A DNA stretch of 35,475 bases from Gemmatimonadaceae bacterium (lineage in GTDB: Bacteria > Gemmatimonadota > Gemmatimonadetes > Gemmatimonadales > Gemmatimonadaceae): NCBI GenBank assembly GCA_022843265.1, contig JALHNZ010000034.1:1-35475 (forward strand), read 5' to 3'. A program made the position numbers and the translations under genes. Below are positions 16,228 to 21,494 of the stretch, piece by piece. Within the stretch, counting starts at the first letter, position 1, and the number at the start of each line of letters is the position of its first letter. Under the pieces are notes generated by a model. That model was not told the origin of the DNA and did not search any database. It saw only the letters and a list, made by a program, of their open reading frames with translations.

Positions 16228-19200
16228 TCAGGAAAGAGACGCGGCGTGCAGCAGCGCCGGATCATTCAGCTCGTGTGCGATACGACGTGCGGCCGACGCG
16301 GCTTCGATCGCCGCCTCGGCCCGATTGACTAACGCGTTCGCTTGGGCGAGCCGCTGTTGCATCCATCCTTCGCCTCGTCGATCGGCGAGGTCTACGCGCA
16401 GACGCAACGATTGCGTATAGCGCTCCACCGCTTCCTCAAGGCGTCCGCTGGCGATGGCGACGTCGCCGAGCGTGGCATAGGCGTAGGCGCGCAGCTGCAG
16501 TTCACCGGTGTGCTCTGTGCTGCGCACTGCCTCCACCAGCGCAGTTCGGGCCTCATCCCATCGCTTGAGTTGATGGAGCGAGGCACCAAGGCTGTTGAGA
16601 ATCAGCGCTTCATGCACGCGATCCGCGTTCTCGCGGCAAATCTTGAGTGCCACTTCGTAGTGGGAAACCGCTTCGCGATATTCGCCGCGCTGCCAGTGCA
16701 CGATTCCCAGCGCGTTGCGCACCGTCAGCTCACGCGCGCGGTCACCAACCCGCACCGCAAGTGCCAATGAATCTTCGTAACGCGCGACTACCTGTTCCGG
16801 CGCAACATCGAGTTGCCGCTCCGCACGGGCCAGCCCATCGAGCGCCTCCGCTTCACCCGCCGCATTTCCGACAGACATATGCACGGCGCGGGCCCGGTCC
16901 CATTGATCGCGCGCTTGTTCAGGCTCACCCAGTCGTTCGTGCGCCAGCGCGAGCCGGCGCCACATCATGGCTGTCGTGACATGATCTTCAAGCTGCGCAA
17001 AGAGACCGGCCGCGCGATGCAGATGCGGCAGCGCATCGGTCACTCGGTCGAGCCCGATCAGGACTTCTCCCAGCGATCGACTGGCGTGCGCCGTCCCCTC
17101 GGCAAAGCGTGCTTTCACGTTGATGTCAAGCGCGTGCCGATAGGTGGCGAGTGACTCTTCCACCAACCCTTGCTGCAGCTGAATGTGTGCGATCGCGGGC
17201 AGGGTAAACGACGCGATAACCGGATGTCGATGTTCGAGACCCTCGCTCATAAGCCGGTGAAAGTATTCGAGCGCTCGATCGTAGTCGCCAAGATCGCGGT
17301 GCACCGTGCCAATCACGTTAAGCAGCGCACCATATCGCACCGGGTTGTCTGTTGTCGCGGTGCGCGTGAGCGCGGCTTCCAACACCGTCAGGGCACGCGG
17401 TGAATCGCCCATCGCGCGCAGGATGTTGGCCATGGTGGCCAGGTCTCCGGCTTCGGCACGCGTGTCGGAGGCGGCGCGACCGAGCTCGAGCACCCGCTCG
17501 ATGATGCCAAGCGCGTCTGCATGGCGTCCCTCATGTGAACGCAGCAGCGCAATACTTCGTAATGCGTTGCGTTCACCCACGGTATCCGCGCGCTCGCTGG
17601 CAATGTGCAGCGACGTCTCCAGTGCCCGCTCGGCCGACTCGAATCGTCTCAGCAGCGTATATGCATCGCCCTGTCGCAGGTATGCTTTGGCGAGTCGCTC
17701 GGATGGTCCGAACGGTGCCAGCAGCGCAATCAGTCGTTCCACCAGACCGAGCTGACGGTTGCGCATCCCGAGTGTTTCGGAAAGACGTTCCTGTCGAAAG
17801 AGAACGTCTGACTCAAGATCCCGCCGCGAACTATCCTCGGGCAGGCGAGCCAGCCAGCGCTCGACGCGCTCCAGTGTGTTCAGCGCATCTGCGTTCTGGT
17901 TGAGATCCATCGTTCGATCAGCGGATTGCAGCCCGTAGTGCACCGCCTCCGCCCACGACTCCGCGCGACCAAAGTGATGCGCCAGTCGATCAACATGTGA
18001 TTCCAGTCGTCCTGCGTAACGCGCTTCGATGGCCCGACCGACGGCGAGATGCATGGACGCACGCTGATGTTCAAGCAGACTGTCGTACGCGACTTCTTGC
18101 GTGAGCGCGTGCTTGAAGCGAAAGAGCGGCTCGGGGACCACGCCAATCTGTTGCACGAGCCCCGACGCCTTGAGGCGTTCCAGTGCCTGCGGGAGCGTGT
18201 CACGCGATTCATAGACTGCATCCAGCACGCCACGCGCAAAATCACGACCGATGACCGAAGCGATACGAAGCACTTCCAGTGCGTGTGCATCGAGGCGATC
18301 GATGCGTGTGCGAAGCACGGCCTGCACAGTCTCCGGCACCAACAACTCGGTGGCTTCACCCGTGGTGGCCGCCGTCCCATCGTGTACGGTCACGGCGCCA
18401 ACTTCACGCAATGCCTCGCACACCTCCTCAAGAAAAAACGGGTTACCCCCGGTTCGTTCGTGCAACTGCTGCGCGAGCTCCGGAGAAATGCGAGACGCAC
18501 CAAAGACACCACAGGCGATGGCCGAGGTGGCGTCGTCATCGAGCGGTGACAGCGGCACAACGCGCAAGTGATCGGCGTTGCCCCAGTCGATCGTTGCATC
18601 CGGGCGCGACGTCGCCACGAGCATGAGGGGCGCGTTGGTCAGAATCTCGGACAGATTGCGCAGCGCGGCGCGCGACGCTTCATCGGCCCAATGCCAGTCC
18701 TCCAGCAGGAGCAGCGTGGGTTGTGCGTTTGAGCCGAGTGTAAACAGCGCTGCAATTGCGTCAAACATGGCGCTTTGCAGCAGATCACCGCGTAGCTGCT
18801 CGGGCACGGGATACGCGGCACTGGGAATCGAGAGCAGCGCGAGCAGTAACGGCAGAAATTCGTCAAGCGAGCGGTCAATAGCGCGGGCGGACAGCAACAT
18901 GGCTTCGTGCCGTTCAGACGCAGTGCCGCCTTCTGGCATGGCGAGTGCATCGGCGATGATTTCGATGAACGGTGCGAACGGTGTTCGGCTGGCAAAGGCG
19001 TCGCAATGTCCCACAAGAATCCGCACGTCGCGCGAGAAGGCTCCTTCGCGCAGCTCGCGCAACAGTCGACTCTTGCCAACGCCGGCTTCCCCAACGATGG
19101 CCGTGAAGCTGCCGCTGCCGAGGTGCGCGGCGTCGAGACGCGTCAGCAGCTCGCTGCGCTCGCGTTCGCGACCAACGAACGGTGTGAGCGCTTCGAGCGC

Positions 19201-20910: not shown

Positions 20911-21494
20911 TCGGTGCTCAGCTCGCGATTCAACCACGCGCGCGCTGCTGTCCAATCACGTTTGACCGTCGCGGGTGACAGATCAAGCGCTTCGGCCGTT
21001 TCTTCGATGCTCAGCCCCACGAAAAACCGACATTCGACGATCTGACTTTGACGCGGACTGAGCACCGCCAGGCGCTCGAGTGCTTCGTCGAGCGACGCCA
21101 GATGATCCAGGTGTTGATCCACGGACGCGATCTGCACGTCTGCGTGGTCGAGTGGGACAAGCAACTCGCCTCCACCGCGCTTCTGTGCACGTCGGGTTTC
21201 CGCATAATCAACGAGAACGCGCCGCATGGTTCGCGCCGCCATCGCGAGCACGTGCGTGCGGTCGCGCCATTGCATGCGATCAAGGCCTTCCAGCCGCAGG
21301 AACGCCTCGTGCACCAGACCGTCGGTCTCAAGCGTGTGACCATCAGCCTCGCCCGCGAGCTGACGACGCGCGATGAGACGGAGTCGGTCGTGCAGCAGGC
21401 CGAGCACCTGTTTGAGTGCGCTGCCGTCACCGTGGCTAGCGACCTGGAGCAGACGCGTGACGTCGCCGTGTTCTGGAGTCTGTTGAACGGTCAT
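20907..21494 (-). CDS. ECF-type RNA polymerase sigma factor
   Basis: The 195-residue protein (start at the ATG at 21494, chosen because the family begins with TRLLQ...GDG.AL) has the sigma-2 region around LVHEAFLRLEGLDRMQWRDRTHVLAMAARTMRRVLVDYAETRRAQKRGGG and the sigma-4 region LAVLSPRQSQIVECRFFVGLSIEETAEALDLSPATVKRDWTAARAWL. GHTLETDGLVHEAFLRL is typical of the ECF group found with Ser/Thr kinases in Acidobacteriota, Planctomycetota and Gemmatimonadota. Its stop overlaps the start of the kinase gene, so both are made together. Control by phosphorylation, rather than by an anti-sigma factor, is the likely mode. No anti-sigma gene is present. Confidence 0.93.
   Translation of the reverse strand: MTVQQTPEHGDVTRLLQVASHGDGSALKQVLGLLHDRLRLIARRQLAGEADGHTLETDGLVHEAFLRLEGLDRMQWRDRTHVLAMAARTMRRVLVDYAETRRAQKRGGGELLVPLDHADVQIASVDQHLDHLASLDEALERLAVLSPRQSQIVECRFFVGLSIEETAEALDLSPATVKRDWTAARAWLNRELSTE

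What the first reader, a model, noticed from the sequence alone, without database searches (positions are those of the whole stretch)
16228..21494. Sigma factor coupled to a 1560-residue kinase with a cyclase-like domain that lost a metal-binding Asp
The sigma and kinase genes overlap by GTGA. The protein combines kinase, class III cyclase-like domain, ATPase and TPRs. In the cyclase-like domain the first metal Asp is Thr387 while the second (Asp431) is kept, and the usual Asn of the N-x-x-S-R motif is Asp. The domain may sense nucleotides instead of making cAMP, which would link nucleotide binding to sigma-factor phosphorylation.
Basis: partly seen in the sequence, partly recalled or inferred. 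Interest (0 to 1): 0.6.

Follow-up and report, generated by a model that had tools for sequence, protein, structure and literature searches.

The report
Sigma-factor kinase carrying a dead cyclase
A bacterium pairs a transcription-switching protein with a giant kinase whose built-in "cAMP-maker" domain has lost its catalytic residues across the whole protein family, so it is probably a structural relay between sensor and kinase; the switch protein's usual phosphorylation site is also replaced by a permanently charged residue.

Summary
In detail: an ECF43-like sigma gene (20907-21494, -) overlaps by GTGA a 1560-aa kinase-cyclase-AAA-TPR protein (16228-20910, -). T387 occupies the first metal-Asp position; D431 and R511 are kept; the Asn is D507.

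The loss is not a local quirk. In 25 distinct kinase-cyclase-AAA ("KCA") proteins the first Asp is never present; it is present in all 84 kinase-free relatives that cover the site. KCA forms one clade nested among intact cyclases. Kinase and Walker motifs stay intact, while the metal-Asp column becomes one of the most variable. AlphaFold gives a confident class III cyclase fold. Two other fusions to this chassis (TOMM kinase-cyclase; one BTAD-activator protein) also lack the Asp.

The domain is best read as a non-catalytic relay or dimerisation module between AAA-TPR sensor and kinase. Nucleotide sensing is not excluded, but nothing specifically supports it.

The kinase probably controls this sigma in another way, perhaps through an N-terminal helical domain that tracks ECF43-like sigma neighbours.

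New variant of a known kind. No biochemistry exists.

The parts
20907..21494 (-). ECF43-like sigma factor, 195 aa
   Evidence: TIGR02999 Sig-70_X6 189.6 bits (cut-off 126.15), Pfam Sigma70_ECF 164.7 bits
21318..21329 (-). sigma 2.2 motif E56-T57-D58-G59; D58 sits where ECF43 sigmas carry the phospho-Thr
   Evidence: alignment of relatives; site defined in PMC13147305 and PMC8999054
20907..20910 (-). GTGA overlap of sigma stop and kinase start
   Evidence: sequence
16228..20910 (-). kinase - pseudocyclase - STAND-type AAA - TPR protein, 1560 aa
20722..20904 (-). N-terminal four-helix domain (aa 3-63), associated with kinases next to ECF43-like sigmas
   Evidence: AF2 helices 3-18, 22-32, 36-50, 54-63; family search and adjacency count
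19900..20655 (-). Hanks-type Ser/Thr kinase domain (aa 86-337), catalytic residues K115, D209, D227
   Evidence: Pfam; catalytic residues conserved in all relatives covering them
19231..19785 (-). class III cyclase-fold domain without catalytic residues (aa 376-560)
   Evidence: Pfam Guanylate_cyc; AF2 pLDDT 93.4; Foldseek and VIA-align best CyaB 3r5g, Z 25.7
19750..19752 (-). T387 codon, place of the first metal Asp
19618..19620 (-). D431 codon, second metal Asp (D in 19 of 25 KCA)
19411..19413 (-). R500 codon, KCA-specific Arg in the base-recognition place (23 of 25)
19390..19392 (-). D507 codon, place of the transition-state Asn (never Asn in KCA)
19378..19380 (-). R511 codon, transition-state Arg place (kept in 23 of 25)
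18616..19182 (-). AAA_16 ATPase domain (aa 577-765), Walker A GEAGVGKS 607 and Walker B LLLLED 733 intact
16261..17703 (-). TPR array (about aa 1070-1550)

Best explanation
This is a two-gene signalling unit: an ECF43-like sigma factor and its partner kinase. SHOWN (by sequence and model): the kinase protein is a kinase fused to an older cyclase - STAND-type ATPase - TPR chassis. Its cyclase domain has the class III fold but lacks the first metal Asp and the transition-state Asn in every kinase-fused relative, so it should not make cAMP or cGMP. The kinase and ATPase active sites are strictly kept. INFERRED: the TPR and ATP-binding AAA part senses an unknown cue. The pseudocyclase, whose active relatives work as dimers, passes the resulting conformational or dimerisation change to the kinase, so the former output domain has become a relay. 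The kinase then controls the sigma, probably docking it through the N-terminal helical domain. In the window's clade the usual phospho-Thr of the sigma is Asp, so binding to RNA polymerase through sigma 2.2 should not need that phosphorylation; control is then by another site (T57 next to it is the best candidate) or by binding. Likelihoods: non-catalytic cyclase about 0.93; relay or scaffold about 0.6; control of the sigma by a route other than phosphorylation at the canonical site about 0.6.
For: (1) First metal Asp: 0 of 25 distinct KCA proteins against 84 of 84 kinase-free cyclase-AAA relatives that cover the site; the column moves from the most conserved to the 92nd percentile of variability. 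(2) KCA is one clade (SH-aLRT 100) nested among intact cyclases. (3) Kinase K, HRD and DFG and the AAA Walker A Gly-Lys-Ser are invariant wherever covered, Walker B acidic residues nearly so. (4) Confident cyclase fold: the domain is kept though not catalytic. (5) Two further fusions to this chassis lack the Asp: TOMM kinase-cyclase, 4 of 4 members (C, C, C, H), and a BTAD-activator - cyclase - AAA - TPR protein (A) that lies among intact cyclases in the tree. (6) The sigma belongs to the kinase-linked subfamily; the published EcfP/PknT and EcfK/PknS pairs work by direct sigma phosphorylation, and EcfK T51E is constitutively active (PMC13147305). (7) ETDG in all 5 sigmas of the closest clade, while most other ECF43-like sigmas sampled keep the Thr. 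(8) The N-terminal helical domain is found in exactly 4 proteins of this genome, the 4 kinases directly after its 4 TIGR02999 sigmas; in the genomes compared, 26 of 33 such sigmas have it directly downstream.
Against: No biochemical data. Sequence counts are not independent events: the KCA loss is probably one event, and joining KCA and TOMM into one loss is not rejected (AU p = 0.10). R511, D431 (19 of 25) and the KCA-specific R500 are conserved, which could mean a retained ligand pocket. Dimerisation was not tested; the kinase-to-cyclase arrangement in the AF2 model is uncertain (pTM 0.50). N-terminal domain hits without a detected sigma directly upstream exist (18 of 44).
Confidence: 0.6

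Rival explanations
1. One reading: the dead cyclase domain binds a nucleotide or another anionic ligand and reports it to the kinase.
For: Fold intact. R511 (23 of 25) and D431 (19 of 25) are kept, and R500 is newly near-invariant in the base-recognition place: a positively charged pocket could bind a ligand without metal.
Against: First metal Asp, base Lys, the second glycine of GDG and the Asn are among the more variable columns in KCA. One close orthologue has lost both Asps (L009). No sign of a maintained ATP site.
Confidence: 0.17
2. The domain is the inactive half of a C1/C2-like heterodimer and completes the active site of another cyclase in trans.
For: Mammalian C2 domains lack the metal Asps yet contribute the Arg (established knowledge); R511 is kept; the genome has other cyclase domains with intact Asp, such as L002.
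Against: A C2-like half must supply the Asn, the base Lys and the base Asp/Thr; here they are D507, Q427 and R500, variable or changed in the clade. No cyclase gene was seen beside the orthologues in the neighbourhood check, which however only tested window genes.
Confidence: 0.05
3. Plain EcfP/PknT scheme: the kinase activates the sigma by phosphorylating sigma 2.2.
For: Same sigma subfamily and gene order as published pairs. Several other KCA-linked sigmas keep the Thr (GTTA, DTTA, NTTA, NATA, DATA). T57 remains beside D58.
Against: The acceptor position is Asp in the window and its four closest orthologues, and Ala in a near relative, L033. No Ser/Thr in the sigma linker is conserved in that clade.
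Confidence: 0.2
4. Active cyclase with a shifted metal site (D389 or D392 replaces the first Asp).
For: D389 and D392 lie within five residues of T387; residue 392 is acidic in 14 of 25 KCA.
Against: Gapless alignment in every comparison; residue 389 is D in 1 of 25; the Asn is also lost.
Confidence: 0.03

Closest known systems
ECF43 sigma / Hanks kinase pairs (EcfP-PknT of Vibrio parahaemolyticus; EcfK-PknS of Xanthomonas citri)
   Same: Sigma of the kinase-linked subfamily directly followed by a Ser/Thr kinase gene; sigma 2.2 lacks the full acidic DAED motif.
   Different: The phospho-Thr place is Asp (ETDG). PknS is a transmembrane kinase (PMC13147305); this one has no strong transmembrane segment and instead carries pseudocyclase, AAA and TPR parts.
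TOMM system kinase/cyclase fusion protein (TIGR03903)
   Same: Best NCBIfam model for this protein (453 bits over aa 109-1031); same order kinase, cyclase-like, AAA, TPR; its members also lack the first metal Asp (C or H).
   Different: Below the family cut-off (706 bits). Separate clade in the tree. No TOMM gene was found among the window proteins scanned.
Cyclase - AAA_16 - TPR proteins (CyaB-like cyclase domain fused to a STAND-type ATPase)
   Same: The chassis from which KCA derives; same fold and domain order after the kinase.
   Different: These keep both metal Asps and the Arg and have no kinase; KCA lost the first Asp and the Asn.
Class III adenylyl/guanylyl cyclases with solved structures (CyaB 3r5g, Cya2 2w01, CyaC 1wc0)
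   Same: Fold over the whole domain: Z 25.7 with 187 aligned residues at 2.0 A for 3r5g.
   Different: Catalytic residues missing here.

Membership tests
ECF43-like sigma (TIGR02999 / Sig-70_X6) | Score over the family cut-off | tested here: met
   189.6 vs 126.15 bits
ECF43-like sigma (TIGR02999 / Sig-70_X6) | Hanks-type kinase gene next to the sigma | tested here: met
   GTGA overlap, kinase domain 159 bits
ECF43-like sigma (TIGR02999 / Sig-70_X6) | Thr at the sigma 2.2 phosphosite (conserved in 88% of ECF43, so characteristic rather than strictly defining) | tested here: not met
   Asp in the window and in the 4 closest orthologues; definition from PMC13147305
ECF43-like sigma (TIGR02999 / Sig-70_X6) | Assignment to group ECF43 by the group's own ECF models | not testable with these tools
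   Those models are not held here; TIGR02999 was used as a proxy
Class III nucleotide cyclase (as an enzyme) | Class III cyclase fold | tested here: met
   AF2 pLDDT 93.4; Z 25.7 to 3r5g
Class III nucleotide cyclase (as an enzyme) | Two metal-binding Asp residues | tested here: not met
   T387 in place of the first; D431 kept
Class III nucleotide cyclase (as an enzyme) | Transition-state Asn and Arg | tested here: not met
   D507 in place of Asn; R511 kept
Class III nucleotide cyclase (as an enzyme) | Makes cAMP or cGMP | not testable with these tools
   Needs an enzyme assay
Hanks-type Ser/Thr kinase | Catalytic Lys, HRD Asp, DFG Asp | tested here: met
   K115, D209, D227; invariant in relatives wherever covered
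TOMM_kin_cyc (TIGR03903) | Score over the family cut-off | tested here: not met
   453 vs 705.75 bits
TOMM_kin_cyc (TIGR03903) | Neighbouring TOMM biosynthesis genes (cyclodehydratase, precursor) | tested here: not met
   No cyclodehydratase family among the 22 window proteins scanned with Pfam; small precursor peptides were not specifically sought
STAND-type AAA_16 ATPase | Walker A and Walker B | tested here: met
   GEAGVGKS at 607, LLLLED at 733; Pfam AAA_16

The most novel reading that the evidence does not exclude
The cyclase - STAND - TPR chassis has repeatedly swapped its output. When a kinase (KCA, TOMM) or a transcription activator (BTAD protein in L236) is fused in front, the cyclase loses catalysis but its fold is kept as an obligatory mechanical relay. 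In the window's clade the partner sigma is in addition born 'pre-phosphorylated' (ETDG), so the kinase holds or tunes an intrinsically competent sigma instead of switching on an inactive one.
Probability: 0.3. Interest if true: 0.68.

Novelty: new variant of a known kind. Interest (0 to 1): 0.52.

Why it matters
Sigma-factor phosphorylation is a recently established mode of bacterial gene control, studied in few pairs. This family gives a natural experiment. The kinase and ATPase are strictly kept, the built-in cyclase is dead throughout, and in one clade the sigma carries a natural phosphomimetic. That makes two questions directly testable: what a dead cyclase domain does inside a kinase, and how an ECF43-like sigma is controlled when its phosphosite is permanently charged. 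It also warns annotators not to call these proteins adenylate cyclases.

Tried and rejected
A metal site at D389: rejected, gapless alignments and D389 not conserved. Degeneration as a window-only oddity or assembly error: rejected, clade-wide. Degeneration tied to the sigma: rejected, KCA proteins without a detected sigma neighbour (for example L034, L035, L041, L049, L064) lack the Asp too. Flanking PRC-barrel genes as part of the unit: not conserved in orthologue neighbourhoods. KCA and TOMM as clearly separate losses: favoured by the tree but not proven, AU p = 0.10. Literature: no description of a kinase-pseudocyclase-AAA protein, or of 'pseudocyclase' in this sense, was found in the held open-access papers; most subscription papers are not held, and the original EcfP/PknT paper was read only through later papers.

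Full report
WHAT IS THERE. On the minus strand a 195-aa sigma gene (20907-21494) is followed by a 1560-aa kinase gene (16228-20910) whose GTG start overlaps the sigma stop, GTGA. Pfam places Pkinase at 86-337, Guanylate_cyc at 379-532, AAA_16 at 577-765 and TPRs towards the C-terminus. NCBIfam puts the sigma in TIGR02999 (189.6 bits, cut-off 126.15) and gives the TOMM kinase/cyclase family as the best whole-protein model for the kinase, but under its cut-off (453 of 706 bits). The window lies in a draft genome of 4.63 Mb with nearly 50 kinase-domain places. The same-family genome G010 has the orthologue on a 12,351-base contig, the same length and match as a record named Gemmatimonadaceae, so the organism is most likely a member of Gemmatimonadaceae (inference).

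THE CYCLASE DOMAIN. Against solved cyclases the first strand aligns without gaps (GERRHVTLVVCTIDG with GDRRPITILTSDLRG of 2w01), so T387 is in the metal-Asp place. Profile-profile alignment of the kinase-fused set with the kinase-free set is also gapless there. AlphaFold from 25 family sequences gives pLDDT 93.4. The best structures are CyaB 3r5g (Z 25.7, 2.0 A, 187 residues) and Cya2 2w01. In the model T387 lies in strand 1 and D431 in the turn between the next two strands, as expected for true cyclases.

FAMILY SURVEY. Relatives came from 39 family genomes, 295 class genomes and the GTDB contig scan. Among 25 distinct kinase-cyclase-AAA (KCA) rows, window included, the first-Asp place is S, T, A, R, I, N, M, L, C or Y and never D. 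The second Asp is D in 19 of 25 (otherwise G, A, E). The Asn is never N. The Arg is R in 23 of 25. Among 86 kinase-free cyclase-AAA domains the first Asp is D in all 84 that cover it, and the second Asp and Arg are present in all 86. By column entropy the first Asp moves from the most conserved to the 92nd percentile, while R500, in the base-recognition place, becomes nearly invariant. The kinase K115, HRD and DFG and the Walker A Gly-Lys-Ser are invariant wherever covered, and the Walker B acidic residues nearly so. So selection keeps kinase and ATPase but not the cyclase active site. A phylum-wide search with the pseudocyclase profile found the KCA group well separated in score (210 bits or more against 151 or less). 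The one non-kinase protein in the upper group, L217/L236, is a BTAD-activator - cyclase - AAA - TPR protein that has also lost the first Asp, the Asn and the Arg.

HISTORY. Trees of the cyclase-AAA region make KCA one clade (SH-aLRT 100) nested beside intact cyclases of SAR324, Bacteroidota and Planctomycetota. In one search one row labelled kinase-free, L024, fell inside KCA; its contig begins inside the gene, so its kinase end is simply not seen. The TOMM kinase-cyclases form another clade and carry C, C, C, H in the first-Asp place. On this tree the Asp was lost on two branches, the two kinase fusions, but one joint origin is not rejected (AU p = 0.10). The activator fusion lies among intact cyclases, so its loss is most simply separate. 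Counts of sequences are not counts of events: at most three independent losses are involved.

THE SIGMA. Published ECF43 pairs act through a Thr in sigma 2.2 (consensus QTTA, second T; conserved in 88% of ECF43). EcfP and EcfK T51 are phosphorylated there, and EcfK T51E is constitutively active (PMC13147305 and PMC8999054). The window's sigma reads ETDG: Asp at that place and Glu two before it. The four closest orthologues are the same. A neighbour in the kinase tree, L033, has ESAA. Most other ECF43-like sigmas sampled keep the Thr, including the three others of this genome. No Ser/Thr in the linker is conserved in the ETDG clade. By analogy with T51E this sigma should bind RNA polymerase without that phosphorylation. 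This is inference, not shown.

THE N-TERMINAL DOMAIN. Residues 3-63 are predicted as four helices. A profile of this region hits exactly four places in the window's genome, the four kinases directly after the four TIGR02999 sigmas. Across the genomes that could be compared, 26 of 33 detected sigmas have such a kinase directly downstream, while 18 of 44 domain hits have no such sigma directly upstream. I read it as the likely sigma-coupling module. The four gammaproteobacterial KCA proteins with no detected sigma have a hydrophobic, membrane-like N-terminus instead.

HOW IT MOST LIKELY WORKS. Shown: architecture, conserved kinase and ATPase, catalytic residues of the cyclase lost, charged phosphosite. 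Inferred: the TPR-AAA part senses a cytoplasmic cue (no strong hydrophobic segment; best 19-residue mean 1.6); the pseudocyclase relays or dimerises; the kinase controls the sigma by docking and a non-canonical site.

LIMITS. All conclusions on function are from sequence and single-chain models. Searches began from this protein's own sequence, so distant kinase-cyclase fusions with live active sites could exist outside the sample. Membership of group ECF43 rests on TIGR02999 and the literature, not on the ECF group models.

Noticed in passing
window 15450-15950 (+) and 21664-22239 (+): Two similar PRC-barrel genes flank the sigma-kinase pair; the second is divergent from the sigma across about 170 bases and could be a target. 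Not conserved next to orthologues.
   Followed up: partly
L236:1435-5445 (+) (G380, another class of the phylum): BTAD-activator - cyclase-fold - AAA_16 - TPR protein whose cyclase domain has also lost the first Asp, Asn and Arg; apparently an independent pseudocyclase.
   Followed up: partly
L160, L203, L204, L205: Members of the curated TOMM kinase/cyclase family have Cys or His in place of the first metal Asp, so that family too is probably not a cyclase.
   Followed up: partly
window 20722-20904 (-): Short N-terminal helical domain, without a Pfam match, that marks kinases next to ECF43-like sigmas in relatives of this genome.
   Followed up: partly
window 22249-24282 (-) and L170:3386-5338 (-): A second kinase with hydrophobic segments beside the pair has a very close orthologue (E 2.6e-296) near the pair in G010 as well.
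   Followed up: no
window 19411-19413: KCA-specific near-invariant Arg500 in the base-recognition place of the dead cyclase; role unexplained.
   Followed up: partly
window 32995-35339 (+): DinB_2/FGE-sulfatase protein and histidine-specific methyltransferase in tandem, as in EgtB-EgtD of ergothioneine synthesis.
   Followed up: no
window 30618-32369 (-): Glycine-betaine-type binding domain fused to the transport permease in one chain.
   Followed up: no
window 25410-29802 (-): SusD-like and TonB-dependent receptor pair.
   Followed up: no
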